Source: Malus domestica
Lineage: Eukaryota > Streptophyta > Magnoliopsida > Rosales > Rosaceae
Assembly (NCBI RefSeq): GCF_042453785.1
Contig: NC_091665.1
Coordinates: 24,829,501-24,893,500 of the forward strand
DNA length: 64,000 bases
Direction of reading: 5' to 3'
Shown here: in pieces, positions 689-55,410 of the stretch
How positions within the stretch are numbered: the stretch's first letter is position 1
Layout of the letters: each line of letters begins with the position of its first letter
The notes under the pieces: generated by a model
The model's database searches: none
Seen by the model: the letters and a program-made list of their open reading frames with translations, nothing else
What the model was told of the DNA's origin: nothing
Translations under genes and position numbers: made by a program

Positions 689-701
689 AATTAGCCACTA
701 C
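689..701. repeat. left target-site duplication of the chimeric LINE
   Basis: AATTAGCCACTAC is found here and again, perfectly, at 9685-9697. It lies directly before the (AAC)n tail of the LINE. Confidence 0.75.
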
Positions 702-1315
702 AACAACAACAACAACAACAAAGCCTTTTCCCACTAAGTGGGGTCGGCTATATGAATCCTAGAACGCCATTGCGCTTGGTTTTGTGTCATGTCCTCCGTT
801 AGATCCAAGTACTCAAGTCTTTTCCTAGGGTCTCTTCCAAAGTTTTCCTAGGTCTTCCTCTACCCCTTCGGCCCTGAACCTTTGTCTCGTAGTCACATTT
901 TCGAACCGGAGCGTTAGTAGGCCTTCTTTGCACATGTCCAAACCACCGGGACCAATTTTCTCTCATATTTCCTTCAATTTTGGCTACTCCTACTTTACCT
1001 CGGATATCCTCATTCCCAATCTTATCATTTCTCGTGTGCCCATACATCCCACGAAGCATCCTCATCTCCGCTACACCCATTTTGTGTACGTGTTGATGCT
1101 TCACCGCCCAACATTCTATGCCATACAACATCGCTGACCTTATTGCCGTCCTATAAAATTTTCCCTTGAGCTTCAGTGGCCTATGACGGTCACACAACAC
1201 GCCGGATGCACTTTTACACTTCATCCATCCAGCTTGTATTCTATGGTTGAGATCTCCATCTAAGTCTCCGTTCTCTTGCAAGATAGATCCTAGGTAGCGA
1301 AAACAATCACTTTTT
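702..1315 (-). pseudogene. RTE LINE 3' end fragment with (TTG)n tail
   Basis: The minus strand encodes the C-terminal part of an RTE-clade LINE polyprotein: the [12 protein letters not shown] segment, an [19 protein letters not shown] stretch, and the Arg/Gly-rich [17 protein letters not shown] end. The same residues form the C terminus of the longer LINE at 5359-8515, so this is a second copy of the 3' end. It stops abruptly near 1315, where the LTR-element segment begins. Its 3' end shows the usual conserved tail (GTGGGAAAAGGCTTTG followed by TTG repeats). Several substitutions show that it is not under selection. Confidence 0.85.
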
Positions 1316-2792
1316 GTGATCTTCCCTAGATTGCTCCGGTCATTAGTGTGGATAAGTATATAAATGGATAGAGATAGGAAAGCAAACACAAGATGTACGT
1401 GGTTCACCCAGATTGGCTACGTCCACGGAATAGAGGAGTTCTCATTAATTGTGAAGGGTTTACATAAGTACATAGGTTCAAGCTCTCCTTTAGTGGGTAA
1501 AAGTGAGTGATTTAGTACAAATGACATTATGAAATATTGTGGGAGAATGATCTCGTAACCACGAAACTTCTAAGTACCGGAGTATGGTATCGTCTTGACT
1601 TGCCTTATCTGTCTTATAGGTAGATGTGACATCTTCTCTGGAAGTACTCTTCCTCCATCAAGGGGTGGTATCTATAACTGGTGGAGATGCACAAGGTAAT
1701 GTATCAATTTCACTTGAAGCTTACTTGTAGTTTTAGGCTTGGTCAAGCGCGATACAAACCATGTAGTAGGAGTCCCCCAAGTCGCCGAGCTAGGGGATCT
1801 GTTGAAAGAGGTGACAGACAAGGTAAGCAATCAGAGCTCCGGCTGATTGTTCACATTCTCCCTATCTTGCAGGCAGCATGAAGGATAAAGAGAAGAAAAA
1901 TAAGAAGAGATGATATGGGATACTTTTTCGTTTGAAGAAGTAACTTTCCACAGGCTTATTCTTGAACTGGGCTGGAGGGTTTTCTGGTTTCCTCCAGAGT
2001 ATAAGGCCGACTGAAAAATTTGAGGGTCAAAACAAGTCCATCAAATCTAGAGTACGTTTGACCCTGCTGATATGAGATACTTTTGCTTTTGACAGAGTAG
2101 TGGATGTATCGGCACGTGTGCTGTTACGCTTGTCTCCACATGCTTCCTTGTATCCTTCTCACTTGCCCTATCTGTTCCTCAGGCAGATGCGGTATCTTCC
2201 CTAGAAGCATAAGATGTTGAAGATGAGTACTCGAGAGCAATGCCAGGTAAGTAATCAGGTAAGGGGTTCCAGGCAGTCAGTTCCTGGCTGGAAGCTTGAT
2301 TCCAAGTGCTGACTGATTGTTCTCTTTCTCCTTGTCTTGCAGGTAAGAACAAGGCCAAAGGAAAAGACAGGGAAAAAGCATGATATGGGATACTCTTGCT
2401 TTTAACCCTGATGATATGAGATATTCTTGCTCTAGTATAGCTTGTTTACAGAGGTGTTATCGGGGGGAAAGAAAGCTGAATATTTCGAAAGGCTTTGTTG
2501 GGAGTGCCCTCTCAGATAAGAGGAAGGGTTGAGCATTTTTGCAGGTCTGCCTGTCCGTTGGGGATGGATGTCGACATATATAGGAGTCTCCCTAACATCA
2601 AGTAATAATGCTATTCCTTTACCCTGCTTGGTCATAGCACGGTAGTGGGAGCTGCCAGCTTCACATGTTTTAACTCTGTCAGAGCACTTTGAAAAAATGG
2701 TCTGTGGTATCTGGAAAGCTGATGTTGCGTGTGAAGATTACAGACAAGCTTTATCCAAGGAGATCCAGCTCTTGAAGTTGGGAAAGTGGTGC

Positions 2793-3790
2793 CTCTTCGG
2801 TTTTCGAACAAGCAATCCTGTCGGGGATCTGGCTCTCGAGATTCGGAGAACGATGCCTCTTCGATTTTTGAGAAAGCAATCCTGCTGGGGGTCTGGCTCT
2901 CGAGATTCGGAGAGCGATGTCTTTTCGATTTTTGAGAAAGTAATCATGTTGGGGGTCTGGCTCTCGAGATTCGGAGGGCGGTGCCTCTTCGATTTTGGAG
3001 CAAGCAATCTTGTTGGGAGTGTTTTCTCGAATGTGAGTAAAGGTTGGGCCTGTTTGCTAGTCTACCTTGCCACGAAGCACAGAGGTTGACACACAGGGAC
3101 TTTCCAATTATCCAGCAGTGGTACTGTTCCTTTACCCTATCTTCGATTTTTGAGAAAGTAATCATGTTGGGAGTCTGGCTCTCGAGATTCGGAGGGCGGT
3201 GCCTCTTCGATTTTGGAGCAAGCAATCTTGTTAAGAGTGTTTTCTCGAATGTGAGTAAAGGTTGGGCATGTTTGCTAGTCTACCTTGCCACGAAGCACAG
3301 AGGTTAACACACAGGGACTTTCCAATTATCCAGCAGTGGTACTGTTCCTTTACCATCTCTTCGATTTTTGAGAAAGTAATCATGTTGGGAGTCTGGCTCT
3401 CGAGATTCGGAGGGCGGTGCCTCTTCGATTTTGGAGCAAGCAATCTTGTTGGGAGTGTTTTCTCGAATGTGAGTAAAGGTTGGGCATGTTTGCTAGTCTA
3501 CCTTGCCATGAAGCACAGAGGTTGACACACAGGGACTTTCCAATTATCCAGCAGTGATACTGTTCCTTTACCCTATCTTCGATTTTTGAGAAAGTAATCA
3601 TGTTGGGAGTCTGGCTCTCGAGATTCGGAGGGCGGTGCCTCTTCGATTTTGGAGCAAGCAATCTTGTTGGGAGTGTTTTCTCGAATGTGAGTAAAGGTTG
3701 GGCATGTTTGCTAGTCTACCTTGCCACGAAGCACAGAGGTTGACACACCGGGACTTTCAAATTATCTAGCAGTGGTACTGTTCCTTTACC
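2793..3790 (+). repeat. two-level tandem repeat, 71-bp subunits and 218-bp units
   Basis: The motif TCGATTTTTGAGAAAGTAAT recurs at 2925, 3143, 3361 and 3579, an exact 218-bp period. Each unit is built partly from shorter blocks of about 71 bp that begin CTCTTCGATTTT and end with GGCTCTCGAGATTCGGAG; these also precede the array. The many overlapping open frames here are a by-product of the repeat. Confidence 0.9.
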
Positions 3791-4108
3791 CTTGTGGGTA
3801 ATAATATGGTAGCTAGACCTTCAAATTTTATGTGTCTAAACTTTGTTAGTGTTGTTTCTTTGCTATTCTTTTACCCTTCTTGGTCAGAGCGATGTAGTGG
3901 GAGCTGCAAGCTTCACGTGTCTCAACTTTGTCAGAGAACTTTGGCAAAGTTATCTGTGGTACCCATGAGCTATTGTTGCGTGTGGGAAGTGGGTGATTGA
4001 ACAGTACGATTCATGTGCTTTCTACTTCGCCAGAAATCTTCGACAGAATGCCCATAATTTCCGTAAAGCTGAATGTGCGTGTGACAGGTGCTGACAAGGC
4101 TGGAAAAG

Positions 4109-4275
4109 TAGGTGCCTCTTCGATTTCTGAGATCGACCCTCGTGGTCTCTGAGCAGCCCAGCTTTTGAGAAAGCAAGCCTCTTCGATTTCTGAGATCGGC
4201 CTTCGTGGTTTTTGAGCAGCCCAGCTTTTGAGAAAGCAAACGCCTCTTCGATTTCTGAGCAGGTGCCTCTTCGAT
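4109..4275 (+). repeat. 63-bp tandem repeat upstream of the small ORF
   Basis: Blocks starting CCTCTTCGATTTCTGAGATC and ending with AGCTTTTGAGAAAGC repeat two to three times. Copy B has about four units in the matching place (41831-42060). Confidence 0.8.
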
Positions 4276-4297
4276 TTCTGAAGCTTTGTCGAGTGCA

Positions 4298-4306
4298 GAT
4301 TTTTAT
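4298..4306 (+). promoter_or_regulatory. possible TATA box of the element ORF
   Basis: TTTTTATAG lies about 115 bp before the ATG at 4421 and is kept in copy B (about 42089). A pyrimidine-rich leader follows. The promoter role is inferred from position only. Confidence 0.3.
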
Positions 4307-4420
4307 AGGGGCTGACATTAAGTTCCAAAGCACACTTGAATATCCACCAGTAGAAGCTCCATTCTTGCACTTCTAAGATCTTGATTTGTCCGACCTCTTC
4401 TCTCTTCAACATCTTTGAAA

Positions 4421-5095
4421 ATGTCTGGCCCCTCCGACCGTCATTTTGACTTGAACCTTGTTGAAGAGGCAGCCCCGCCTTCTCCAGACAACATATGACG
4501 CCCATCTTTCGTCTCCCCTACTGGTCCTCTTACCGTTGGGGATTCAATAATGAAGAATGATATGACCGCTGCGGTAGTGGCCAGGAACCTTCTCACTCCC
4601 AAAGATAACAGACTACTTTCCAAACGGTCTGATGAGTTGGCTGTTAAGGATTCTCTGGCTCTCAGTGTTCAGTTTGCAGGTTCTGTGTCTAATATGGCCC
4701 AACGCCTATTTGCTCGAACCCGCCAAGTTGAATCATTGGTGGCTGAAGTGATGAGTCTCAAACAGGAGATTAGAGGGCTCAAGCATGAGAATAAACAGTT
4801 GCACCGGCTCGCACATGACTATGCTACAAACATGAAGAGGAAGCTTGACCAGATGAAGGAATCTGATGGTTAGGTTTTACTTGATCATTAGAGATTTGTG
4901 GGTTTGTTCCAAAGGCATTTATTGCCTTCGTCTTTTAGGGCTGTACCGCTTAATGAAGCTCCAAATGATCAACCTCTGATGCCTCATTCTTCTAGGGTTC
5001 TGTCCAGTACTGAGGCTCCGAATGATCCCCCTCCGGTGCCTTCTCTTTCTGGGGCTCTATCGACTGCTGAGACTTCTCCTAAGTAACCTTTGTGA
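4421..5095 (+). pseudogene. decayed coiled-coil ORF of the LTR-element segment (copy A)
   Basis: This aligns codon for codon with the intact 224-residue ORF at 42210-42884. It is broken by a TGA at 4496 (codon 26, Trp in the other copy), TAG at 4871 and 4889 (both Gln in the other copy) and TAA at 5084 (Gln in the other copy). There is no frameshift. All four nonsense changes are C-to-T or G-to-A transitions, the pattern left by deamination of methylated cytosine. The remaining open stretch (from about 4550) covers the predicted coiled coil. The ORF lies on the strand opposite to the LTR sense strand. Confidence 0.8.
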
Positions 5096-5099
5096 AGGC

Positions 5100-5300
5100 T
5101 CCCTCTTGTTTGTTTATTTTGACTCAAGTATATGTACATATTTGTAACTTATCGGGGATATCAATAAATAAGCTTTTCTTTATTTCAACGTATTGTGTTA
5201 AATACACCAAAGCCTTCTTCGCTAAGTTCTTTGAATTTTCTTTTATTGAAACTTGTATGTTGAAGCTTTGTGAGTGGAGCATGTAGGTTGAGGTAATGTT
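5100..5300 (+). other. 3' flank of the element ORF with polyadenylation-like signal
   Basis: An AT-rich stretch after the ORF carries TCAATAAATAAG near 5160, an AATAAA-type signal on the ORF strand. The same lies at about 42950 in copy B. It supports the idea that the ORF has its own 3' end, but no transcript can be seen here. Confidence 0.35.
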
Positions 5301-5358
5301 CCCTTAATTTCTCGAGTGAGGAAAACTTCTCGGTTGGAGACTTGGAAAATCCAAGTCA

Positions 5359-8300
5359 CTGAGTGGGATCGGCTATATGAATCTTAGAACGCCATTGTGT
5401 TCTGTCCTGTGTCATGTCCTCCGTTAGATCCAAGTACTCTAAGTCTTTTCTTAGGGTCTCTTCCAAAGTTTTCCTAGGTCTTCCTCTACCCCTTCGGCCC
5501 TGAACCTCTGTCCCATAGTCGCATCTTCTAATCGGAGCGTCAGTAGGCCTTCTTTGCACATGTCCAAACCACCGTAACCGATTTTCTCTCATCTTTCCTT
5601 CAATTTCGGCTACTTCTACTTTACCCCGGATATCCTCATTCCTAATCTTATCCTTTCTTGTGTGCCCACACATCCAACGAAGCATCCTCATCTCCGCTAC
5701 ACCCATTTTGTGTATGTGTTGATGCTTCACCGCCCAACATTCTGTGCCATACAGCATCGCCGTGCTTATTGTCGTCCTATAAAATTTTCCCTTGAGTTTC
5801 AGTGGCATACGGCGGTCACACAACACGCCGGATGCACTCTTCCACTTCATCCATCCAGCTTGTATTCTATGGTTGAGATCTCCATCTAATTCTCCGTTCT
5901 TTTGCAAGACAGATCCTAGGTAACGAAAACGGTCACTCTTTGGTATTTCTTGATCTCCGATCCTCACCCCTAACTCGTTTTGGCCTCCATTTGCACTGAA
6001 CTTGCACTCCATATATTCTGTCTTTGATCGGCTTAGGCGAAGACCTTTAGATTCCAACACTTCTCTCCAAAGGTTAAGCTTTGCATTTACCCCTTCCTGA
6101 GTTTCATCTATCAACACTATATCGTCTGTGAAAAGCATACACCAAGGAATATCATCTTGAATATGTCCTGTTAACTCATCCATTACCAACGCAAAAAGGT
6201 AAGGACTTAAGGATGAGCCTTGATGTAATCCTACAGTTATGGGAAAGCTTTCGGTTTGTCCTTCATGAGTTCTTACGGCAGTCTTTGCTCCTTCATACAT
6301 ATCCTGTATAGCTTGGATATATGCTACTCGTACTCCTTTCTTCTCTAAAATCCTCCAAAGAATGTCTCTTGGGACCCTATCATACGCTTTTTCCAAATCT
6401 ATAAAGACCATGTGTAAATCCTTTTTTCCATCTCTATATCTTTCCATCAATCTTCGTAAGAGATAGATTGCCTCCATGGTTGAGCGCCCTGGCATGAACC
6501 CGAATTGGTTGTCCGAAACCCGTGTCTCTTGCCTCAATCTATGCTCAATGACGCTCTCCCAGAGCTTCATTGTATGACTCATTAGCTTAGTACCCCTATA
6601 GTTCATGCAATTTTGTACATCGCCTTTATTCTTGTAGATAGGCACCACAGTGCTCGTTCGCCACTCATTTGGCATCTTCTTTGTTTTCAAAATCCTATTG
6701 AAAAGGTCAGTGAGCCATGTTATACCTGTCTCTCCCAAAACTTTCCACACTTCGATTGGTATATCGTCTGGGCCTACTGCTTTTCTATGCTTCATCTTCT
6801 TCAAAGCTACAACCACTTCTTCCTTCCGGATTCTACGATAAAAAGAGTAGTTTCTACACTCTTCTGAGTTACTTAACTCCCCTAAAGAAACACCCCTTTC
6901 ATGTCCTTCATTGAAAAGATTATGAAAATAACCTTTCCATCTGTCTTTAACCGCGTTCTCTGTAGCAAGAACCTTTCCATCCTCATCCTTGATGCACCTC
7001 ACTTGGTTTAGGTCACTTGTCTTCTTTTCCCTTGCTCTAGCTAGTTTATAGATATCCAACTCTCCTTCTTTGGTATCTAGTCGCTTATACATATCGTCAT
7101 AAGCCGCTAACTTAGCTTCTCTCACAGCTTTCTTCGCATCTTGCTTCGCTTTTCTATACCTTTCACCATTTTCATCGGTCCTATCCTTGTATAAGGCTTT
7201 ACAACATTCCTTCTTAGCCTTCACCTTTGTTTGTACCTCCTCATTCCACCATCAAGATTCCTTTTGGTGTGGGGCAAAGCCCTTGGACTCTCCTAATACC
7301 TCTTTTGCTACTTTTCGGATACAACTAGCCATGGAATCCCACATTTGGTTAGTTTCCCCTTCTCTATCCCACACACACTGGGTGATTACTTTCTCTTTGA
7401 AAATGGCTTGTTTTTCTTCTTTTAGATTCCACCATCTAGTCCTTGGGCACTTCCAAGTCTTGTTCTTTTTTTCTCACTCTTTTGATATGTACATCCATCA
7501 CCAACAAGCGATGTTGATTAGCCACGTTCTCTCCTGGTATAACTTTGCAATCCTTACAAGTTATACGATCCCCTTTCCTCATTAGAAGAAAATCTATTTG
7601 TGTTTTTGACGACCCACTCTTGTATGTGATCACATGTTCTTATCTCTTCTTAAAGAAGGTGTTGGCTAAGAAGAGATCATATGCCATTGCAAAATCCAAG
7701 ATAGCTTCCCCATCCTTGTTTCTCTCCCCAAAACCATGGCCACCATGAAAACCTCCATAGTTGCCTGTCTCCCTGCCCACGTGTCCATTTAAATCTCCTC
7801 CTATAAATAACTTCTCCGTCTGAGCAATTCCTTGCACCAAGTCTCCAAGGTCTTCCCAAAATTTCTCCTTCGAACTCGTATCCAACCCTACTTGAGGTGC
7901 GTACGCACTAATCACATTGATAAGTTCTTGTCCTATTACAATCTTGATTGCCATGATTCTATCTCCTACCCTCTTGACATCTACAACATCTTGTGTCAAG
8001 GTCTTGTCCACGATGATGCCAACACCGTTTCTCGTTCTATTTGTGCCCGAATACCATAGTTTAAACCCTGAGTTTTCTAGATCCTTTTGCCTTACGACCA
8101 ACCCACTTAGTTTCTTGTAGGCATATAATATTTATCCTTCTCCTCACCATAACTTCTACTACTTCCATAGATTTTCCCGTCAAGGTTCCTATATTCCACG
8201 TTCCTAAACGCATTTTGCTCTCTTGAACTCTACCCTTCTGTCTTAGCTTCTTCACCCTTCCCCGTCTAATAGGATCAAAGTACTTCTTTTGTGTGTCCCG

Positions 8301-8515
8301 TGTAAAGTTGATAGGAGCATATGCTCCCAAACAACTTTGAGTGGAGTCGTTCGAAAAGAAGTTTCTATAGCCCCCTTGCTCATTTAACACTGCATCCGGG
8401 TGTCGATGGAGATACAGCGACCCTTGCTCACTTATCACTGTGCTCGGGCCACACAGCGCGCCACTTACGGGTGACGCCCTAGCTTTAGCGCAAATTCGTT
8501 CTGGATTCATTTTCA
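5359..8515 (-). pseudogene. RTE-clade LINE polyprotein (endonuclease and reverse transcriptase), inactivated
   Basis: Reading from 8515 down, the protein shows an APE-type endonuclease (GTWNIGTLTG, CLQETKW, SAYAPQ, GGDLNGHVGRE, and a TQIDFLL stretch followed by NQHRLLV). A reverse transcriptase follows ([58 protein letters not shown]) and then the RTE C-terminal region ending near 5359. This order is the RTE plan. Damage: a frameshift near 8085-8105, a TAA near 7636, a TGA near 7250 replacing the first Trp of a WWNEE motif, and an Ala-to-Thr change next to the catalytic Asp pair (FTDD near 6127; copy B keeps FADD). The last 622 codons (5356-7224) are open. There is no RNase H domain, as expected for RTE. 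Confidence 0.9.
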
Positions 8516-8559
8516 TAAGGATTCGACGTAATCATGGAGTGCCGGCCTATGCCCAAGCC

Positions 8560-9684
8560 TTGGGAGTGTTGGAGCGTTTCTAGGTGTTTTCTATCTTTGA
8601 TTTCAATGTTTAAATTAAGTTATCTTTGTGTAATTGCGAGTATGAGGAACTAAACCCCCCTTGGCTAGGGGGGGATTCAAAACCATGTTTATGCTTGCTA
8701 TATGATTTGATTACTTCCAATTGCGTTTCATGAATTGTGAATTTAATTTACTTATCTCTATGAATTAAAACTAATTTGTGTATGTTGGTTGAGAGTGCAC
8801 ACTTAATTTTCATGCATAAGTTTGATGCTAGGATATAAGGAAGTTTCACCTAATCGTTATGAACTTATATTCATAAGTAGTAAAGGTTGTTGATCACAAT
8901 CGTGTTAAGTAAATTCTTGGCATAAGTTTCATGCAATTCATAGTAACGAGTGCCTCGTCAATGCTTATGTTTTTCATAGAACTTAATGATTCTTGCGTGT
9001 ATCTCTATTATGCAATTCATGTAGGGAACGTGTAGGGAATGTTTTGGGTTGTCGTATGCAATCATCCAACCTAATAACTTGTGGAAAAACTGAGGGTTAA
9101 TTAGTGCAATTCACGGTTAATTTGGGGCGTTGAGTATTCATGGTTTGTCGAAGAGCAATTGGAAATCATTTTGTATGCAAGTATAACATGTGTGGAGAAG
9201 AACCCCTTAGCTAGCTTCTCATCCATTCAATTTGATCAATCTCGTTTTAAAACCTATTTTGTTTTACAAAGTTCTTGTTTTGTTTTCAAATTCGTCTAAA
9301 ATCAATCCCCCTTTATTTTGTTGAGTCATATTAGTTAGAAATCAATTTAGTTTGTGTTTTTAAGTGTCTTGAGTCAAGTTATAACATATTTTCGTTCAAA
9401 TTCTTCCTTAGTGTTCAAAACTGCCCAGATTGTGTTTTTAAGGCAGTTTTGAGTGTTTAGGTGCTGTTTTGAGTCTTTTGGTTTGTTTTAGTGTTTTAAA
9501 GTATAGTTTTGCATTCTTTGAGTCTAGTTTAGTGCTTTAAACTTTGATTTTATGTTTTCAAGTCAGTTTCCAAGTGATTTAGCAATCCCTCCTAATCCCT
9601 GGCCTAGAACGATTCCTACTTACATACTTTACTACAATTGATAAAAGAGGGTTTAATTTGTGTGCTTATATAATTCGGCATCAA
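8560..9684 (+). mobile_element. Athila-like LTR fragment forming the 5' end of the chimera
   Basis: Non-coding sequence with the traits of Athila-type gypsy LTRs: GAACTAAACCCCCCTTGGCT near 8647, AGAACCCCTTAGCTAGCTTC near 9200, long TTTTGAGT-rich blocks, and an end in GGCATCA directly at the TSD. Family placement rests on recall of such LTRs. Its own sense strand is +, opposite to the LINE. It is not separated from the LINE by any TSD, so it moved with it. Confidence 0.5.
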
Positions 9685-9697
9685 AATTAGCCACTAC
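9685..9697. repeat. right target-site duplication of the chimeric LINE
   Basis: A perfect second copy of AATTAGCCACTAC (first copy 689-701). Confidence 0.75.
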
Positions 9698-31958: not shown

Positions 31959-32059
31959 ATATATATGAATACTCAGCTAACTGCCTTATCTGAATCTAAC
32001 TGAATATTATAATAGCAACAATCCTAACTGCCATAATTATTTGGCTACATACTCTAACA

Positions 32060-32420
32060 AACCCAAGCCTAAGAGGGGATTTGGAAATAGTTTTCAACCA
32101 GCAATAGACGTGCCTCGGTTAGAACCTTATTAGCTGCGTCATTGCTCCAAGCGCAAAAATGACAACACGTTGTGGTTGGCTCCAGGCGTTTGCAACTCTG
32201 CATTCTTCACTTGATCGATGTGGGACAAAGTTTTTCTCTTAAATATGTCTCAAGACTCTTAACAATCTAACACATCACACAATTATATATTATTGTCAAA
32301 ACAATCCAAATATTACAAGCCAGACGACAAAGCAACAACACTAGAAAATTACTTTTGAAAACAAAAAAGCACTTGTTGAGAATACCAATCGACATCCTTA
32401 AGTTTAATTGTTGTGTAAAT
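32060..32420. other. downstream flank of the methyltransferase pseudogene
   Basis: It aligns with 44370-44737 downstream of the intact gene (GGAAATAGTTTTCAACCAGC, ACACATCACACAATTATATA in both). Confidence 0.8.
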
Positions 32421-33867
32421 TTATGGAAAAGCTTGAATCATTGATTGGACCGCATGAATAGGTGTGATTGTGTATCGGCTAAATCCAGCCTCTCCAAGAA
32501 CATATCCCCATTCCTTCAAGGTCCTTTCTTTGCCTGTGTTTGTATGGGCCAGCATCACCATGCCTAGCATCAATCTCACATCTGCTAGCTTGTTTTCTTC
32601 TTTTCCATCTTCGATCACAGCTTCTATGATTATAACTTTCCCTCTATCGTTCAGAATAGCTTCTCTGCACTTTTTAGGATACGAATACAGTCGTCGTCTC
32701 CCTAGTTGTGAAGAACCCACTCAATTCAAAAAAAGAGAATTAGATCATACTTTTCACATAACGCATCTTGTCTATCAAGCAAGAATAGAGGAACCCCATT
32801 TTTTCTCGATGGTAATAAGCAAATCACATGATGTGATGGTTGATATGTTTGTTAACTGACATCTTAATTATATTAAGTCATAAGTTGTGCTCCCTAGCTC
32901 TATTGAGGTTTCATTGGGGGATTAATATTAAACAAGACGACTGCTAGCTAGCAATTTTCAAGGCAATAATCTTCCTAAGTGGTTTAATTTTATTGGTTTC
33001 CTTAAACTATAAATATACTAACCATGATAAGTTCAACATCAGCCCACAAAAAAAAGTCACCTCCGACATTCTCAATCCGATCACACTCCTGAGCAACATA
33101 CACAACATAAGGAAGATCAAAGTTGATGCCTCGAATCCACGGACAAGTCTCGACCAACAAGCACAACGTAGTCCCATTACCACCACCCACACCTACTATT
33201 GTCTCGAGCCCTTTGAACACCTCTAAACAGCTTTCAATCACTGTAGGCACATCTACCCTTGCATCACAAGCCATTGCATCATTGATGAGCTTGCTGTGAT
33301 CAGGATTGGCGGCGGCAAAGCTCCATAAATCTTCTCCACGCACTACCTCAAATGACGGATTGCTATTTCCTCAAAGCCGGGCACTTAGGCCGTGCCATGA
33401 TGCCAGCATTACTGGGCTACTCTCGAGCAAAATGAACGCAGCCACGCTATTTTCTCCGGATTTTAATAGCCGTTTGGACAAAGGTTTTTGTGCATAACCT
33501 TTGGGGCCTAATTCCGTTGGTTTTTCTTTGAATATTTTGAGGTGGACTAGTACCCTCATGACGCGGTATAGGCGAGAAGGATCACAACTTAGAGCAGACG
33601 AGAGCTCTAAGAGTGTCATGGGGCTGCCATGGCTTTCAATTGCATCCGCTATCCCGAGTTCAATGGCGCATTTTACAACGCGATTTTAACAAATCCGAAC
33701 ACATATTTCCACACATCCACTTTCGCACGCTCTTCTTCTTCTTCCCAGGTTAACTCTCTTTTTGTATCTTCCGTTTTTTCTCTGCGTGTGCGTCTTGTTG
33801 TCGAAAGCTCAACAAAATGTGCAAGATCGTGAGTGGAAACAAACAATGACAAGGAAGAGATAAACAA
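32421..33867 (-). pseudogene. broken paralogue of the O-methyltransferase gene
   Basis: Exon 1 spans about 33867-33024 and exon 2 about 32727-32421. Damage relative to the gene at 44738-46472: a frame disruption after WKYVFGFVKIAL near 33680; a CGA-to-TGA stop at 33371-33373 (after SARL); loss of the SAM-site acid residues (VGVGGGNGT instead of VDVGGGDGT); a small deletion at the end of exon 1 (FFLWADVELIM); and in exon 2 HDWGDDD becomes HN-stop-GDDD (TAG at 32702-32704). The exon 2 C terminus (GKVIIIEAVIEDGKEENKLADV and on) is otherwise well kept, so the loss is recent compared with the duplication. Confidence 0.9.
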
Positions 33868-33889
33868 ACAATGAAACCAAGTAACACAC

Positions 33890-37850: not shown

Positions 37851-38070
37851 GTAATATCAAATTAAATATATTTTTCTAGAGATAATTTTCAGATGATAAA
37901 TAGAATAAAGAGTTTTGAATATGATATTTGTACGTTCAAAAGATATCCGTTTTGCCGTTGTTACATAGAGAGGCAATTATCACCATATTAACAAAAACAA
38001 CATTAACTCATATACGCCAAATATTGTCTCGTATATGCATGAAACGAGAAGAGCACTACAGAAGTGTTGT
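37851..38070. repeat. right copy of the segmental duplication, upstream part
   Basis: It matches 21790-21890 and 23285-23352 (CATATACGCCAAATATTGTC against CATATGCACCAAATATTGTC). The chimeric retrotransposon copy B interrupts it at about 38071, and the match resumes after 44240. Confidence 0.75.
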
Positions 38071-38680
38071 GCAAACAACAACAACAACAACAAAGCCTTT
38101 TCCCACTAAGTGGGGTCGGCTATATGAATCCTAGAACGCCATTGCGCTCGGTTTTGTGTCATGCCCTCCGTTAGATCCAAGTACTCTAAGTCTTTTCTTA
38201 GAGTCTCTTCCAAAGTTTTCCTAGGTCTTCCTCTACCCCTTCGGCCCTGAACCTCTGTCCCGTAGTCACATCTTCGAACCGGAGCGTCAGTCGGCCTTCT
38301 TTGCACATGTCCAAATCACCAGAGCCGATTTTCTCTCATCTTTCCTACAATTTCGGCTACTCCTACTTTACCTCGGATATCCTCATTCCCAATCTTATCC
38401 TTTCTCGTGTGCCCACACATCCCACGAAGCATCCTCATCTCCGCTACACCCATTTTGTGTACGTGTTGATGCTTCACCACCCAACATTCTCTGCCATACA
38501 ACATCGCTGGCCTTATTGCCGTCCTATAAAATTTTTCCTTGAGCTTCAGTGGCCTACGACGGTCACACAACACGCCGGATGCACTCTTTCCATCCAGCTC
38601 GTATTCTATGGTTGAGATCTCCATCTAATTCTCCGTTCTCTTGCAAGATAGATCCTAGGTAACGAAAACGGTCGCTTTTT
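38071..38680 (-). pseudogene. RTE LINE 3' end fragment (copy B)
   Basis: It equals 702-1315 in content: the C-terminal LINE segment with [20 protein letters not shown] and [17 protein letters not shown], and the conserved 3' tail. A short deletion near 38590 removes the Lys-rich stretch before KSASGVLCD and shifts the frame. Confidence 0.85.
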
Positions 38681-40170
38681 GTGATCTTCGCTAGATTGCT
38701 CCGGTCATTAGTGTGGATAAGTATATAAATGGATAGAGATAGGAAAGCAAACACAAGATGTACGTGGTTCACCCAGATTGGCTACGTCCACGGAATAGAA
38801 GAGTTCTCATTAATTGTGAAGGGTTTACACAAGTACATAGGTTCAAGCTCTCCTTTAGTGAGTACGAGTGAATGATTTAGTACAAATGACATTAGGAAAT
38901 ATTGTGGGAGAATGATCTCGTAATCACGAAACTTCTAAGTATCGGAGTGTGGTGTCGTCTTGACTTGCCTTATCTGTCTCATAGGTAGATGTGGCATCTT
39001 CTCTGGAAGTACTCTTCCTCCATCCAGGGGTGGTATCTTTAACTGGTGGAGATGCACAAGGTAATGTATCAATTTCACTTGAAGCTTACTTGTAGTTTCA
39101 GGCTTGGTCAAGCGCGATACAAACCATGTAGTAGGAGTCCCCCAAGTCGCCGAGCTAGGGGGTCTGCTGAAAGAGGTGACAGACAAGGTAAGCAATCAGA
39201 GCTCCGACTGATTGTTCACCTTCTCCCCATCTTGCAGCAGCATGAAGGATAAAGAGAAGAAAAATGAGAAGAGATGATATGAGATACTTTTGCTTTTGAA
39301 GAAGTAACTTTCCACAGGCTTATTCTTGAACTGAGCTGGAGGGTTTTCTGGTTTCCTCCAGAGTATAAGGCCGACTGAAGAATTTGAGGGTCAAAACAAG
39401 TCCATCAAATCTAGAGTACGTTCCACCCTGCTGATATGGGATACTTTTGCTTTTGACAGAGTAATGGATGTATCGGCACGTGTGCTGTTACGCTTGTCTC
39501 CACATGCTTCCTTGTATCCTTCGCACTTGCCCTATCTGTTCCTCAAGCAGATGCGGAATCTTCCCTGGAAACATAAGATGATGAAGATGAGTACTCGAGA
39601 GCAATGCCAGGTAAGTAATCAGGTAAGGGGTTCCAGGCAGTCAGTTCCTGGCTGGAAGCTTGATTCCAAGTGCTGACTGATTGCTCTCTTTCTCCTTGTC
39701 TTGCAGGTAAAAACAAGGCCAAAAGAAAAAACAGGGAAAAAGCATGATATGGGATACTCTTGCTTTTAACCCTGATGATATGAGATATTCTTGCTCTAGT
39801 ATAGCTTGTTTGCAGAGGTATTATCGGGGGGAAAGAAAGCTGAATATTTCGAAAGGCTTTGTTGGGAGTGCCCTCTCAGATATGATGAAGGGTTGAGCAT
39901 TTTTGCAGGTCTGCCTGTCCGTTGGGGATGGAGGTCGACATATATAGGAGTCTCCCTAACAACAAGTAGTAATGCTATTCCTTTACCCTGCTTGGTCATA
40001 GCACGGTAGTGGGAGCTGCCAGTTTCACATGTTTTAACTCTGTCAGAGCACTTTGAAAAAGTGGTCTGTGGTATCTGGCTCTCGAGATTCGGAGAACGAT
40101 GCCTCTTCGATTTTTGAGAAAGCAATCATGCTGGGGGTCTGACTCTCGAGATTCGGAGAGCAGTGTCTCT

Positions 40171-41997
40171 TCGATTTTTGAGGAAGTAATCATGTTGGGA
40201 GTCTGGCTCTCGAGATTCGGAAGGCGGTGCCTCTTCGATTTTGGAGCAAGCAATCTTGTTGGGAGTGTTGTCTCAAATGTGAGTAAAGGTTGGACATGTT
40301 TGCTAGTCTACCTTGCCACGAAGCACAAAGGTTGACACACAGGGACTTTCCAATTATCCAGCAATGGTACTGTTCCTTTACCCTCTCTTCGATTTTGAGA
40401 AAGTAGTCATGTTGGGAGTCTGGCTCTCGAGATTCGGAGGACGGTGCCTCTTCGATTTTGGAGCAAGCAATCTTGTTGGGACTGTTTTCTCGAATGTGAG
40501 TAAAGGTTGGGCATGTTTGCTAGTCTACCTTGCCACGAAGCACAGAGGTTGACACACAGGGACTTTCCAATTATCCAGCAGTGGTACTGTTCCTTTACCC
40601 TTGTGGGTAATAATATGGTAGCTAGACCTTCAAAATTTATGTGTCTAAACTTTGTTAGTGCTGTTTCTTTGCTATTCTTTTACCTTTCTTGGTCAGAGCG
40701 ATGTAGTGGGAGCTGCAAGCTTCACGTGCTCAACTTTGGCAGAGAACTTTGGCAAAGTGATCTGTGGTACCCATGAGTTATTGTTGCGTGTGGGAAGTGG
40801 GTGATTGAACATTAAGATTCATGTGCTTTCTACTTCACCAGAAGTCTTCGACAGAATGCCCATAATTTCTGCAAAGCTGAGTGTGCGTGTGACAGGTGCT
40901 GACAAGGCTAGAAAAGTAGATGCCTCTTCGATTTCTGAGATCGGCCCTCGTGGTCTCTGAGCAGCCCAGCTTTTGAGAAAGCGAGCGCCTCTTCGATTGA
41001 TTCGGAGAACGGTGCCTCACCGATTTTTGAGAAAGCAATCATGCTGGGGGTCTGGCTCTCGAGATTCGGGGAGCAGTGTCTCTTCGATTTTTGAGAAAGT
41101 AATCATGTTGGGAGAGTGGCTCTCGAGATTCGGAGGGCGGTGCCTCTTCGATTTTGGAGCAAGCAATCTTGTTGGGAGTGTTTTCTCGAATGTGAGTAAA
41201 GGTTGGGCATGTTTGCTAGTCTACCTTGCCACGAAGCACAGAGGTTGACACACAGGGACTTTCCAATTATCCAGCAATGGTACTGTTCCTTTACCCTCTC
41301 TTCGATTTTTAAGAAAGTAGTCATGTTGGGAGTCTGGCTCTTTAGATTCGGAGGACGGTGCCTCTTCGATTTTGGAGCAAGCAATCTTATTGGGAGTGTT
41401 TTCTCGAATGTGAGTAAAGGTTGGGCATGTTTGCTAGTCTACCTTGCCACGAAGCACAGAGGTTGACATACATGGACTTTCCAATTATCCAGCAGTGGTA
41501 CTGTTCCTTTACCCTTGTGGGTAATAATATGGTAGCTAGACCTTCAAAATTTATGGGTCTAAACTTTGTTAGTGCTGTTTCTTTGCTATTCTTTTACCCT
41601 TCTTGGTCAGAGCGATGTAGTGGGAGCTGCAAGCTTCACGTGCTCAACTTTGGCAGAGAACTTTGGCAAAGTTATCTGTGGTACCCATGAGCTATTGTTG
41701 CGTGTGGGAAGTGGGTGATTGAACAGTAAGATTCCTGTGTTTTCTACTTCCCCAGAAGTCTTTGACAGAATGCCCATAATTTCCGCAAAGCTGAGTGTGC
41801 GTGTGACAGGTGCTGACAAGGCTGGAAAAGTAGGTGCCTCTTCGATTTCTGAGATCGGCCCTCGTGGTCTCTAGGGAGCCCAGCTTTTGAGAAAGCGAGC
41901 GCCTCTTCGATTTCTGAGATCGGCCTTCGTGGTCTTTGAGCAGCCCAACTTTTGAGAAAGCAAACGGCTCTTCGATTTCTGAGATCAACCCTCGTGA
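40171..41997 (+). repeat. 913-bp tandem duplication with 218-bp units
   Basis: TCGATTTTTGAG-type unit starts lie at 40171, 40389, 41084 and 41302: 218 bp within each pair and 913 bp between pairs. The single-copy stretch starting TTGTGGGTAATAATATGG is likewise doubled (40601 and 41515). Copy A has four successive 218-bp units and only one such stretch. Confidence 0.85.
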
Positions 41998-42060
41998 TCT
42001 CTAAGCAGCCCAACTTTTGAGAAAGCAAACGCCTCTTCGATTTCTGAGCAGGCGCCTCTT
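41831..42060 (+). repeat. 63-bp tandem repeat upstream of the ORF (copy B)
   Basis: About four units beginning CTCTTCGATTTCTGAGATC; copy A has fewer. Confidence 0.82.
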
Positions 42061-42209
42061 TGATTTCTGAAGCTCCGTCGAGTGCAGATTTTTATAGAGG
42101 CTGGCATTAAGTTCCAAAGCACACTTGAATCTCCACCAGTAGAAGCTTCATTCTTGCACTTCTAAGATCTTGATTTGTCCGACCTCTTCTCTCTTCAACA
42201 CCTTTGAAA

Positions 42210-42884
42210 ATGTCTGGCCCCTCCGACCGTCGTTTTGACTTGAACCTTGTTGAAGAGGCAGCCCCGCCTTCTCCAGACAACATATGGCGCCCATCTTTCG
42301 TCTCCCCAACTGGTCCTCTTACCGTTGGGGATTCCGTGATGAAGAATGATATGACTGCTGCGGTGGTGGCCAGGAACCTTCTCACTCCCAAAGATAACAA
42401 ACTACTTTCCAAACGGTCTGATGAGTTAGCTGTTAAGGATTCGCTGGCTCTCAGTGTTCAGTGTGCAGGTTCTGTGTCTAATATGGCCCAACGCCTATTT
42501 GCTCGAACCCGCCAAGTTGAATCATTGGCGGCTGAAGTGATGAGTCTCAAACAGGAGATTAGAGGGCTCAAGCATGAGAATAAACAGTTGCACCGGCTCG
42601 CACATGACTATGCTACAAACATGAAGAGGAAGCTTGACCAGATGAAGGAAACTGATGGTCAGGTTTTACTTGATCATCAGAGATTTGTGGGTTTGTTCCA
42701 AAGGCATTTATTGCCTTCGTCTTCTGGGGCTGTACCGCGTAATGAAGCTTCAAATGATCAACCTCTGATGCCTCATCCTTCTAGGGTTCTGTCCAGTACT
42801 GAGGCTCCAAATGATCCCCCTCCGGTGCCTTCTCTTTCTGGGGCTCTACCGACTGCTGAGACTTCTCCTAAGCAACCTTTGTGA
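42210..42884 (+). CDS. intact coiled-coil ORF of the LTR-element segment (224 aa)
   Basis: I do not recognise a named domain. The ATG at 42210 is the first in frame; a track-like start at 42204 would be TTG. The N terminus has an acidic/aromatic stretch RRFDLNLVEEAAPPSPDNIW, whose DLNL resembles an EAR-type motif. Residues about 85-150 form a strongly heptad-patterned helix (VESLAAEVMSLKQEIRGLKH, then ENKQLHRLAHDYATNMKRKL). The C terminus is Pro/Ser-rich with two related NEASNDQPLMP / TEAPNDPPPVP segments. Upstream lie a TATA-like TTTTTATAG and the 63-bp repeat, downstream an AATAAA-type signal. The ORF is antisense to the LTR-defined RNA. It may be a captured host gene or an accessory element gene; I recall similar apple 'uncharacterized' proteins but cannot verify this. 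Confidence 0.65.
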   Translation: MSGPSDRRFDLNLVEEAAPPSPDNIWRPSFVSPTGPLTVGDSVMKNDMTAAVVARNLLTPKDNKLLSKRSDELAVKDSLALSVQCAGSVSNMAQRLFARTRQVESLAAEVMSLKQEIRGLKHENKQLHRLAHDYATNMKRKLDQMKETDGQVLLDHQRFVGLFQRHLLPSSSGAVPRNEASNDQPLMPHPSRVLSSTEAPNDPPPVPSLSGALPTAETSPKQPL

Positions 42885-43147
42885 AGGTTCCCTCTTGTGT
42901 GTTTATTTTGACTCATGTATATGTACATATTTGTAGCTTATCGGGGATATCAATAAATAAGCTTTCCTTCATTTCAACGTATTGTGTTAAATACACCAAA
43001 GCCTTCTTCGCTAAGTTCTTTGAATTTTCTTTTGTTGAAGCTTGTATGTTGAAGCTTTCTGAGTGGAGCATGTAGGTTGGGGTAGTGTTCCCTTAATTTC
43101 CCGAGTGAGGAAAACTTCTTGGTTGGAGACTTGGAAAATCCAAGTCA

Positions 43148-44240
43148 CTGAGTGGGATCGGCTATATGAATCTTAGAACGCCATTGTGCTCGATCCTGTG
43201 TCATGTCCTTCGTTAGATCCAAGTACTCTAAGTCTTTTCTTAGAGTCTCTTCCAAAGTTTTCCTAGGTCTTCCTCTACCCCTTCGGCCCTGAACCTCTGT
43301 CCCATAGTCGCATCTTATAATCGGAGCGTCAGTAGGCCTTCTTTGCACATGTCCAAACCACCGTAACCGATTTTCTCTCATCTTTCCTTCAATTTCGGCT
43401 ACTCCTACTTTACCCCGGATATCCTCATTCCTAATCTTATCCTTTCTCGTGTGCCCACACATCCAACGAAGCATCCTCATCTCCGCTACACCCATTTTGT
43501 GTACGTGTTGATGTTTCACCGCCCAAAATTCTGTGCCATACAGCATCGCTGGCCTTATTGCCGTCCTATAAAATTTTCCCTTGAGCTTCAATGGCATACG
43601 GCGGTCACACAACACGCCGGATGCACTCTTCCACTTCATCCATCCAGCTTGTATTCTATGGTTGAGATCTCCATCTAATTCTCCGTTCTTTTGTAAGATA
43701 GATCCTAGGTAACGAAAACGGTCGCTCTTTGGTATTTCTTGATCTCCGATCCTCACCCCTAACTCGTTTTGGCCTCCATTTGCACTGAACTTGCACTCCA
43801 TATATTCTGTCTTTGATCGGCTTAGGCGAAGACCTTTAGATTCCAACACTTCTCTCCAAAGGTTAAGCTTTGCATTTACCCCTTCCTGAGTTTCATCTAT
43901 CAACACTATATCGTCTGCGAAAAGCATACACCAAGGAATATCATCTTGAATATGTCCTGTTAACTCATCCATTACCAACGCAAAAAGGTAAGGACTTAAG
44001 GATGAGCCTTGATGTAATCCTACAGTTATGGGAAAGCTTTCGGTTTGTCCTTCATGAGTTCTTACGGCAGTCTTTGCTCCTTCATACATATCCTTTATAG
44101 CTTGGATATATGCTACTCGTACTCCTTTCTTCTCTAAAATCCTCCAAAGAATGTCTCTTGGGACCCTATCATACGCTTTTTCCAAATCTATAAAGACCAT
44201 GTGTAAATCCTTTTTCCCATCTCTATATCTTTCCATCAAT
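43148..44240 (-). pseudogene. RTE LINE reverse transcriptase, 5'-truncated (copy B)
   Basis: 364 residues remain open, from [20 protein letters not shown] through [20 protein letters not shown], the catalytic FADD and on to the C-terminal end. The endonuclease and the N-terminal palm are absent because the copy stops at 44240. It is collinear with 5359-6455 of copy A and differs by scattered substitutions. Confidence 0.88.
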
Positions 44241-44737
44241 CTTCTCTCGTAAATTTGAGGAAATTAATTAGAATCTAATATTGTTAATGATTAAAATAAA
44301 TTGTTTGAACTAAATATTGTAGAGACTCCTCCAAAGAGAGTTGACCTTTTCAAAAATTCTCAAAGGCACAAGACTAAACCCAAGCCTAAAATGGAGTTTG
44401 GAAATAGTTTTCAACCAGCTATAGACGCGCTTTGGTTAGAACCTCATTAGCTGCGTAATTGCCCCAAGCGCAAAGATGACAACACATTGTGGTTGGCTCC
44501 AGGCGTTTGCAACTCTACATTCTTCACTTGACCAATGTGGGACAAAGTTTTTCTCTTAAATATGTCTCAAGACTCTTAACAATCTAACACATCACACAAT
44601 TATATATTATTGTCAAAACAATCCAAATATTACAAGCCAGATGACAAAGCAACAACACTAGAAAATTACCTTTGAAAACAAAAAAGCACTTATTGAGAAT
44701 ACCAATCGACATCCTTAAGTTTAATTGCTGCATAAAT
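44241..44737. repeat. segmental duplication, part downstream of the methyltransferase gene
   Basis: It matches 23355-23501 and then, without a break, 32065-32420. The uninterrupted join near 44370 shows the state before the copia insertion. Confidence 0.82.
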
Positions 44738-46472: not shown

Positions 46473-46559
46473 CTTGTTGTGCGAATGCTCAACAAAATGT
46501 GCAAGATCGTGAGTGGAAACAAACAATGACAAGCAAGAGATAAGCAAACAATGAAACCA

Positions 46560-47248
46560 AGTAACAAGTACTCAAAGATTTATGCTAGTTGTAAGTTTTG
46601 TAAACTGCAGGTTTAATATGAATAATTAGTAATCCAGTATGATTAAAGAGGAGCATATGGATATAGTGTTTAAACACTCAACATTTAGGATGCACAAGTG
46701 AAAGATGGAAAAAATATGAGATTCAACCGCAAAAGAGTGGATGTAATTAGCTAGTGTGTTTTTCTTGGGATTTCTAGCATCTACAAATATATGTTGAAAG
46801 CTTGGGATTTCTCACACACACATGTGTGTGTATATATAGACATAATGGCCTTTATGGAGAGGGAAAACTTTTTTTTTTCTTTCAAAAAATGGAGATTAGT
46901 TATGGGACCTATTCCACGTTGAACTTTAACAATCCAAGCTGTCTATTTTTTTTATCTCCCGATTCATAGATCATCCATGCAAAAATTCAATTCAGTTTGA
47001 AACCATTTACCTATTTAATTGTTATAATGAAATTTCAATGTTTCTTAGAACATTGTGTTTGTCAATTTCTTTGAACTTAACCAAATGACTCAATTTTTTC
47101 CAATTTGCCTAATATTTTGCAAGAATGATCGTGCACCTTGAAAAATAGATGGTTCGGATTATTGAAGTTCGATGTCGTGTGAGCCCTAAACAATCCCCAT
47201 TTAAAACAAAAGGATGTGGAGTCCTTCCCTTAAAGGCTTTGTGTGTGT
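46560..47248. other. upstream region of the O-methyltransferase gene
   Basis: AT-rich; the promoter should lie here, but I cannot point to a reliable TATA box. No other gene seen. Confidence 0.45.
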
Positions 47249-49898: not shown

Positions 49899-50280
49899 GT
49901 TTGGACTAGGCCTGGTTGAATTCTTATAGGACATTACACGACACGAAATTAATAGATGTTTGGGTCGACGTGATAACGAATAGGGTCATTATCGGGTAAT
50001 CCGATAAGTACCTATTAAGATAACGGGTTGATTCGGGTATACACATGGATAACACGATACACAATAAGCAAAATATTAATTTTATAATTTTATAACCCTA
50101 AAAAATACTATAATTATATATATATATATATATTAAATTAACTATAATAATTGTAATAATTATACCCCCAAAATATTAACTATAATAATTATATATATAT
50201 ATATAATTTTAAATTAAATTTTATACCCCTAAAAACTATAATAATTATACGTACAAAATAAATAGATTTAAATCTACTTA

Positions 50281-50355
<75 letters not shown>

Positions 50356-52093: not shown

Positions 52094-52450
52094 GGGTAAA
52101 AGACTGTTTACTACCCTTATGTTTCATGGTTTTCAACATTTAGTACATCAAGTTTTTTTCGTCTCAGAGTCATACCTAAAGTGTAAATTTTGGGACAATC
52201 TCATACATCCGTTAGTCAAACTGTTAAATTTGCCGTTAATTGTGACGTGGCGCCCATGTGGACAATGACTGGGCGCCACGTGTCAGCCACGTTTTTTTTT
52301 TCTTTCTTCTTTTCTTCTTCTTCTTCCACCCGACTGCAACATTTTTTTTTCCTTCCTCCTTCTCCTTCCTTCCCCTTCTTCTCCTTCTTCCTTCTCTTCC
52401 TCCGAATCTGGGGAAGTTTTTTTTTTCTTCCTCCTTCTTCCTCCTTCTTC

Positions 52451-52481
<31 letters not shown>

Positions 52482-53761: not shown

Positions 53762-54021
53762 AAAAAAAAACATATAAAGATCAAGTAACGGGACAAAACT
53801 TTCGACCGTTATAAAAAGAAAAATCACGATTTAACGGTTATTTTAACTTCGATTTTGATGATTTTTTACAGCTACACTCCTTGACCTTATATGAATACAA
53901 TGAATGAATTCGATCTTCAATTTAAAATATTTACATTTATGTTATACTTAATGAAATTATGAATAAACTTTTAAATGTTAGTGAATCTATTGTTTTGATG
54001 GGATACGCATTTTACGAAAGA

Positions 54022-55410
54022 GAGCAATCAGTCAGCACTTGGAATCAAGCTTCTAGTCAGGAACTGACTGCCTGGAACCCCTTGCCTGATTACTTACTTG
54101 GCATTGCTCTCGAGTACTCATCTTCAACATCTTATGCTTCCAGAGAAGATACCACATCTGCCTGAGGAACAGATAGGGCAAGTAAGAAGGATACAAGGAA
54201 GCATGTGGAGACAAGCGTAACATAACATGTGCCGATACATCCACTACTTTGTCAATACCAAAAGTATCCCATATCATCAGGGTCGAACGTACTCTAGATT
54301 TGATGGACTTGTTTTGACCCTCAAATTCTTGAGTCAGCCTTATACTCTGGAGGAAACCAGAAAACCCTCCAGCCCAGTTCAAAAATAAGCATGTGGAAAG
54401 TTACTTCTTCAAAAGAAAAAGTATCTCATATCATCTCTTCTCCATTTGCTTCTGCTTATCCTTGGTGTTATTTACGACACAAAGAGAAGGAGAACAATCA
54501 ACCGGAAGCCGAAGTCGAACCTTTGATCCAGGTTGCTTGCTTGGAAGTCTGATTGCTTACCTTGTCTGTTACCTCATTCAGCAAATCTCCTAGCTCGGCG
54601 ACTTGGGGGACTCTTACTATAGGGTTTGTATCGCACTTGACCAAGCTCGAAACTACAAGTAAGCTTCAAGTGAAATTGATACATTACCTTGTGCATCTTC
54701 ATCGGTTAAAGATACCATTCCTGGATGGAGGAAAAGTACTTCCAGAGAAGATGCCACATCTACATATGAGACAGATAAGGCAAGTGAAAATGATACCACA
54801 CTTCGGTACTTAGAAGTTTCGTGATTACTCAATGGCTTGGATCTTGCAAGTCCCCAACCGAGGAGTTTCCCTCACTCGAGAACTTAGGGGAGCACTGTTT
54901 GTACCATACTTGGCCAATCCCGAAACTATTGAGCATCGGTCAACGTTATACCGTCAAGGACTCAGAAGAGTTTCCTTCTAACCAGGAGGCCAATCACAGT
55001 GCGACACGTGTCGACATCAGAAGCCAATCATAACGCAACATGTGTTAACATCAGAAGCCAATCACAACACAACACGTGTCAATGTCAGAATAAAACTAGA
55101 AACTCTCTTCTATAAATAGAGATCATTCTCTCATAATATTTCCTAATGTCATTTGTACTAAATCATTCACTAGTACTCACTAAAGGATAGTTTGAACCCA
55201 TGTACTTGTGTAAACCCTTCACAATTAATGAGAACTCCTCTACTCCGTGGACGTAGCCAATCTGGGTGAACCACGTACATCTTGTGTTTGCTTCCTTGTC
55301 TCTATCCATTTGCATACTTATCTACACTAGTGACCGGAGCAATCTAGTGAAGGTCACAAACTTAACACTTTATGTTATACCAAAGTCCTCACTGATTTTG
55401 TGCATCAACA
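54022..55410 (+). mobile_element. 3' part of the LTR element, with complete LTR
   Basis: From 54022 the internal sequence runs as the reverse complement of about 1540-2320 of the copy A segment. It ends in a purine tract (TTAGGGGAG at about 54884) followed by an LTR, 54896-55410, TGTTTGTACC...TGCATCAACA. The LTR has a TATA box CTATAAATAG at about 55111 and the GTGAACCACGTACATC stretch at about 55270. It sits inside a unit of the 347-bp array. The 5' part is missing and no TSD is seen. It fixes the LTR orientation for the segments in copies A and B. Confidence 0.75.
54970..55090 (+). promoter_or_regulatory. triplicated CCAAT/ACGTG motif in LTR U3
   Basis: GCCAATCACA/GCCAATCATA followed by CACGTGTC or ACATGTGT occurs three times at about 33-bp spacing, directly before the TATA box. 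This is a plausible enhancer of the LTR promoter; the binding role is inferred from motif type. Confidence 0.5.

What the first reader, a model, noticed from the sequence alone, without database searches (positions are those of the whole stretch)
689..9697. A 9 kb LINE-LTR chimera inserted as one unit with a 13-bp TSD
The perfect repeat AATTAGCCACTAC lies at the outer ends of a block that joins an Athila-like LTR fragment, an RTE LINE, a segment of a different LTR element, and a second LINE 3' end with (TTG)n tail. TSD and tail are what RTE-type target-primed insertion leaves. The simplest reading is a read-through RNA, ending at the second LINE 3' end, that was reverse transcribed in full. 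LINE transduction of a 4 kb LTR-element segment, with the tail supplied by a duplicated 3' end, is unusual.
Basis: partly seen in the sequence, partly recalled or inferred. Interest (0 to 1): 0.8.

Follow-up and report, generated by a model that had tools for sequence, protein, structure and literature searches.

The report
Abundant LINE carrying LTR-element segment
The block is one copy of a common jumping element of this plant genome: an RTE-type LINE that once took up 4 kb of an unrelated retrotransposon and has since spread, as one unit, to well over a thousand places; only a 1.1-kb extra piece at one end is peculiar to this copy.

Summary
The 13-bp duplication and the four-part block are real. 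But the RTE-LTR-RTE chimera did not arise in this insertion. In the window's own genome (651 Mb) the junction near 5358 occurs 1,822 times exactly and the one near 1316 at least 683 times. I read 26 other loci: flanks are unrelated, junctions shared, and 9 of 10 full-length copies have 10-20 bp target-site duplications. Two of the 7 full-length copies checked have an uninterrupted endonuclease-RT frame of 1,057 codons. So this is an established, probably autonomous LINE family whose long 3' region is an antisense LTR-element segment followed by a second RTE 3' end. On contig C1, 66 of 68 hits of one RTE pattern are chimeric and one is a plain RTE, though that pattern comes from the chimera itself. 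Both junctions lie inside a native LTR element and show microhomology (TTTG; CACTRAGTGG), which fits template switching during target-primed reverse transcription. Only the Athila-like piece (8547-9684) is private to copy A: its junction occurs once genome-wide, and it ends at an Athila LTR terminus beside the duplication. Rating: new variant of a known kind (composite LINE); repeat libraries could not be searched.

The parts
689..701 (.). left target-site duplication AATTAGCCACTAC
   Evidence: exact match to 9685-9697; a null search for boundary matches reached at most 8 bp in 1,100 draws
702..1316 (-). external RTE 3' end ('E' piece) with (TTG)n tail, written (AAC)n on the + strand from 702
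   Evidence: present in 22 of 22 copies compared, and distinct from the internal RTE end
1313..1316 (.). junction 1: TTTG microhomology between RTE and LTR element
   Evidence: exact 19-mer 683 times in the genome
1317..5356 (+). segment of another LTR retrotransposon (called LTR#2), sense on +, so antisense within the LINE; starts about 53 nt after the point where native copies begin to match; holds 64/218-bp tandem repeats
   Evidence: the native copy in L023 continues past both junctions, copy C past junction 1
4499..4873 (+). remnant of the LTR#2 236-codon frame (open in copy B at 42174-42884); no Pfam match, no sign of selection
5357..5366 (.). junction 2: CACT(G/A)AGTGG microhomology (9 of 10)
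   Evidence: exact 22-mer 1,822 times in the genome
5356..8546 (-). main RTE part: frames for endonuclease and RT, interrupted in copy A; its stop codon (5356-5358) lies at junction 2
   Evidence: uninterrupted 1,057-codon frame in 2 of 7 full-length copies checked
8547..9684 (+). Athila-like LTR 3' portion, antisense to the LINE, ending at the LTR terminus CATCA plus AA; private to copy A
   Evidence: junction 23-mer found once genome-wide; LTR-end motif 3,105 times; terminus followed by TGGCGCCGTTGCC in two of three other copies read
9685..9697 (.). right target-site duplication
38074..44244 (-). copy B of the family, 5' truncated inside the RT region
54016..55360 (-). copy C: native LTR#2 fragment without any RTE part

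Best explanation
Block A is an insertion of an established composite LINE family. Element, 5' to 3': RTE 5' region and single endonuclease-RT frame; stop codon at junction 2; a 4-kb antisense segment of LTR retrotransposon LTR#2 acting as a giant 3' UTR; a second 0.6-kb RTE 3' end with (TTG)n tail. How it works: the RTE protein recognises the terminal RTE 3' end, nicks the target, primes on the tail and copies the whole chimeric RNA, giving TSDs or 5' truncation. [Shown: anatomy, copy number, shared junctions, TSDs, open frames. Inferred: activity and 3'-end recognition.] Origin, once: while copying an RTE RNA the RT switched after about 0.6 kb at TTTG to an antisense LTR#2 RNA, then at CACTRAGTGG to a second RTE RNA, about 5% different, 12-22 nt from its 3' end. 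[Inferred from microhomology; about 0.55.] Copy A adds a private step: its cDNA stopped 82 nt short of the 5' end and was joined to an Athila-like LTR fragment that ends at the LTR terminus, before the TSD was closed. [Junction shown; mechanism inferred: capture of Athila DNA or a template switch.]
For: Junction 2 22-mer 1,822 and junction 1 19-mer 683 exact hits, reversed-pattern control 0. Four junction-2 hits without exact junction 1 nearby: all 4 carry the block across it, variant bases read in 3. 19 of 20 loci start at A 702-706, one at 825; 6 more have the tail. No flank match among 28 insertions. Boundary TSD of 10 bp or more in 9 of 10 full-length loci. Junction 1 at the same place in 22 of 22 copies, junction 2 in 18 of 18 that reach it, with base substitutions. 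External and internal RTE ends separate, 27 of 573 sites fixed. Frame with PF03372 and PF00078 in two copies. Native LTR#2 runs past both junctions and has 1,805 exact 26-mer hits. A plain RTE with canonical tail exists: L059. Athila junction unique; LTR terminus checked in 3 copies.
Against: The microhomologies (4 nt; 9 of 10) also fit DNA end joining or insertion into LTR#2. An antisense LTR#2 RNA is assumed, not seen. Only 2 of 16 truncated loci have a boundary TSD, one full-length locus has none, and copy B has none. The 26 loci are part of 39 best-scoring hits (13 unread), hence biased to young, intact copies. The count of plain against chimeric RTEs used patterns from the chimera, so diverged plain RTEs are missed. 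No transcript or assay shows activity.
Confidence: 0.85

Rival explanations
1. Nested-locus origin: a truncated and a full-length RTE inserted into one LTR#2 copy in the same direction, the second by internal priming on CACTRAGTGG; a read-through RNA from one RTE to the tail of the other founded the family.
For: LTR#2 is common (1,805 exact hits). The junction-2 microhomology could pair the nicked LTR#2 strand with RTE RNA CCACUUAGUG with one G-U pair, which would explain the lost 12-22 nt and tail.
Against: Needs two insertions into one copy. Patterns for RTE 5' end followed by LTR#2, and for LTR#2 followed by the tail, gave 0 hits each; these were exact patterns, so an old, diverged source could be missed.
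Confidence: 0.3
2. DNA-level rearrangement (microhomology end joining) fused RTE and LTR#2 pieces in the chromosome, and the fused locus was then transcribed.
For: Both junctions have short homology.
Against: Needs two rearrangements that leave RTE parts in the same direction at both ends; nothing specific supports it.
Confidence: 0.12
3. A and B are parts of one segmental duplication.
For: They share 5.7-6.2 kb at roughly 92-95% identity.
Against: Similarity stops at the tail and at B's truncation. Flanks (up to 300 nt left, 900 nt right) show no match between A, B and the 26 other loci.
Confidence: 0.01
4. The Athila-like piece at A is a later LTR insertion into the LINE, or a 5' transduction from a source locus.
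For: The piece ends at an LTR terminus.
Against: A later insertion would leave the missing 82 nt of the LINE 5' end beyond the LTR; instead AA and the TSD follow directly. A transduction source should carry the same junction, but the 23-mer occurs once (exact match only).
Confidence: 0.12

Closest known systems
SVA (hominid composite retroelement; PMC13174262, passages seen)
   Same: an LTR sequence, tandem repeats and another element fused into one mobile unit (passage); moved by LINE machinery (recalled)
   Different: SVA encodes no enzyme (recalled); here the composite keeps a full endonuclease-RT frame and ends in its own RTE 3' end
MINE chimeras, Magnaporthe grisea (PMC2104539, passages seen)
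   Same: LINE fused to an unrelated transcript, flanked by 10-20 bp repeats, ascribed to template switching; a tripartite case is reported
   Different: in MINEs the foreign part lies 5' of truncated LINEs (31 elements); here it sits between coding region and 3' end, with one fixed junction pair in over a thousand copies
LINE-1 chimeras with diverse RNAs (PMC13174262, passages seen)
   Same: template switching or RNA ligation during target-primed reverse transcription
   Different: described there as chimeric insertions; here the chimera itself became a replicating family
RTE-clade LINEs of plants (recalled)
   Same: single frame with endonuclease and RT, short 3' UTR, simple-repeat tail, 5' truncation
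   Different: 4-kb LTR-derived segment and duplicated 3' end

Membership tests
RTE-clade LINE | single frame with AP-like endonuclease and RT | tested here: met
   PF03372 and PF00078 in the 1,057-codon frame of two copies
RTE-clade LINE | simple-repeat 3' tail, TSDs, 5' truncation | tested here: met
   (AAC)n tail and variable 5' ends; TSD in 9 of 10 full-length loci, but only 2 of 16 truncated
RTE-clade LINE | RT phylogeny places it in the RTE clade | not tested
   clade name rests on recall of motifs and tail type
LTR retrotransposon | terminal repeats with short TSD bounding the unit | tested here: not met
   the 586-bp repeats enclose only the LTR#2 segment; TSDs lie outside the whole LINE
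MINE-type recurrent template-switch chimera | copies arise by separate switches with differing junctions (my understanding, partly recalled) | tested here: not met
   same junction places in 22 of 22 and 18 of 18 copies; only A's Athila junction is of that kind
SVA-like composite | fused parts move together as one replicating unit | tested here: met
SVA-like composite | non-autonomous (recalled) | tested here: not met
   uninterrupted enzyme frame in 2 of 7 full-length copies checked; enzyme activity untested
Segmental duplication | shared flanks | tested here: not met
   no flank match among 28 insertions

The most novel reading that the evidence does not exclude
The captured antisense LTR segment gave the LINE an advantage, for example by separating the coding region from the 3' end, damping small-RNA silencing or altering transcript ends, so that the chimera replaced its plain RTE parent: a LINE improved by swallowing part of another retrotransposon.
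Probability: 0.15. Interest if true: 0.8.

Novelty: new variant of a known kind. Interest (0 to 1): 0.52.

Why it matters
It suggests that a LINE can tolerate 4 kb of foreign antisense sequence between its gene and its 3' end, provided a terminal RTE 3' end follows, and still spread to well over a thousand copies. That makes the 3'-end recognition rule of RTE elements testable. The 586-bp direct repeats around the LTR segment could also mislead LTR-finding software: one survey reports a LINE clade among LTR retrotransposon sequences of apple (PMC11197308, passages seen; the link is my inference).

Tried and rejected
LTR#2 inserting as an LTR element into the RTE: rejected, because native LTR#2 runs on past both junctions (L023; copy C past junction 1) and the RTE is duplicated, not split. 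I first took TGTGATC at 1317 for the LTR start; the match between C and L023 begins about 53 nt earlier, at TGTTGATG.

Selection on the antisense 236-codon frame: pN/pS 0.68 against 0.52 and 0.71 in the other frames of that strand, 20 of 22 copies; no support. 16 of the 20 lack stop codons.

Plain RTE by long-gap pattern: not accepted by the tool; replaced by two short patterns. The first RTE-continuous pattern fitted A's variant only (23 hits); a better one gave 1,643.

Viral contigs scan with the RTE 3' end: 0. For the TGTT/AACA LTR families (PMC5659011, abstract and passages) I had no sequence to compare.

Literature: eight searches listed no paper whose title or abstract start describes this chimera; most subscription papers and all repeat libraries were out of reach.
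Full report
Observation. The 13-bp repeat AATTAGCCACTAC occurs exactly twice in the window, at 689 and 9685; 0.0013 are expected by composition. The block between them, read on the minus strand, is an Athila-like LTR piece (9684-8547), an RTE LINE (8546-5357), a 4-kb segment of another LTR element (5356-1317, here LTR#2), and a second RTE 3' end with (TTG)n tail (1316-702). The RTE frames match reverse transcriptase (well above cut-off) and, in the broken copy A, endonuclease below its cut-off. Copy B at 38074-44244 has both internal junctions.

A family, not a one-off. The window lies in a held genome of 651 Mb in 19 contigs (from size and content I recall apple or a near relative, no call names it). 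A 200-base query across junction 1 gave 863 candidates; the 40 that were scored, the window included, matched over the full length at 98-100%. Exact patterns counted junction 1 683 times, junction 2 1,822 times and the RTE 3' end with tail 2,899 times, with no hit for the reversed controls. The junction 1 count is low at least partly because of variant bases: four junction-2 hits without exact junction 1 nearby carry the block, with variant junction bases seen in three and an alignment running through in the fourth. On the first 23.6 Mb of contig C1, 51 of 65 junction-2 hits have an exact tail 4.0-5.1 kb away, and 51 of 100 tails have an exact junction 2.

Independent insertions. I read 26 of the other 39 scored loci (20, 6). 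Of the first 20, 19 begin at A's base 702-706 and one at 825. Their 5' ends vary; 10 of 26 reach within 11 nt of a common 5' end, 82 nt beyond the point where A's RTE stops. Nine of those ten have TSDs of 10-20 bp. The copy used as reference is 7.85 kb; others are shorter or longer, in part through the tandem repeats. Left flanks (up to 300 nt) and right flanks (900 nt) show no match between A, B and the 26 loci. In 22 copies (A, B and 20 loci) junction 1 is at the same place in 22, and junction 2 in all 18 that reach it, with substitutions. The sample is the best-scoring end of the list, so it favours young copies.

Anatomy. Two of the 7 full-length copies checked have one uninterrupted 1,057-codon frame with endonuclease and RT domains, both above cut-off. 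In copy A the last RTE frame ends at junction 2. The LTR#2 segment is antisense to it and holds an opposite-strand frame of 236 codons without sign of selection. External and internal RTE 3' ends differ at 27 of 573 fixed sites; mean differences are 2.4% within external, 1.9% within internal and 6.6% between. So the chimera most likely formed once, from two RTE sources, and the two ends did not homogenise.

Donors. LTR#2 exists on its own: copy C in the window, a longer copy in locus L023, and 1,805 exact hits across its native 5' sequence, some listed as same-strand pairs 7-8 kb apart, as LTR pairs would be. L023 continues beyond both junctions, C beyond junction 1. The junctions show TTTG and CACT(G/A)AGTGG shared between LTR#2 and RTE. 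A plain RTE is rare in this sequence class: on C1, 56 of 68 hits of an RTE pattern have exact junction 2; of the other 12, ten are chimeric with changed junctions, one is a plain RTE with canonical tail (L059) and one is unclear. The pattern was taken from the chimera's internal RTE, so diverged plain RTEs would be missed. Of 20 internal-RTE hits sampled from the 39 others listed, 16 showed junction 2, none a plain tail, and four did not show junction 2 in the 261 bases fetched.

Copy A's own oddity. The junction of RTE with Athila-like sequence at 8546/8547 occurs once in the genome by exact match. The Athila-like LTR family is common (3,105 hits with up to one mismatch, many of the listed ones clustered on C1). 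In two of three other copies read its end CATCA is followed by TGGCGCCGTTGCC, which I recall as a primer-site sequence, and in one by other flank. In A the piece ends at that terminus plus AA, then comes the TSD. A later LTR insertion would have left the last 82 nt of the LINE beyond it, and they are absent. A 5' capture during insertion fits best. Locus L023 may be a second case: an 18-bp repeat lies 448 bp beyond its truncation, but that sequence is locally repeated.

Mechanism. The best reading for the founding event is two template switches during target-primed reverse transcription. A nested insertion with read-through is the main rival; patterns for its source locus gave no hit, which is weak evidence because they were exact.

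Known parallels. SVA and MINE are composites tied to LINE activity (PMC13174262 and PMC2104539, passages; in part recalled). This family differs by keeping an enzyme frame and by holding the foreign part between gene and 3' end. Eight searches listed no description of it, but a repeat-library consensus may exist.

Noticed in passing
26 fetched loci L009-L034: Boundary TSDs in 9 of 10 full-length but only 2 of 16 5'-truncated copies (Fisher p 1.6e-4): truncated copies may close by another route, with target loss or captured sequence.
   Followed up: partly
window 44244; L010 and L028: Three truncated copies (B, L010, L028) end within 4 nt of each other in the RT region (A 6451-6455) with different flanks: a possible RT stop site.
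   Followed up: no
window 38027-38074 and 44245: Copy B: TCTCGTA lies at its right boundary and again about 40 nt left of its tail, perhaps a TSD plus a short 3' extra piece.
   Followed up: no
window 50270-55789: A 347-bp repeat surrounds LTR#2 copy C; related sequence lies on both sides of it.
   Followed up: no
window 52094-53761: GA-rich, low-complexity stretch with long inverted-repeat arms, 233 nt at 96%.
   Followed up: no
window 32059-33886 and 44376-46566: Duplicated pieces, 90-93% alike; one frame reads like a plant O-methyltransferase (recalled). Copy B ends about 130 bp from the second.
   Followed up: no
window 61141-63989: Frames that look like a BED-finger and a hAT-type dimerisation region (recalled), perhaps a hAT transposon.
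   Followed up: no
L062 and L064: Composite copies with deletions at junction 2 that look like slips between short repeats, so junction variants still arise.
   Followed up: no
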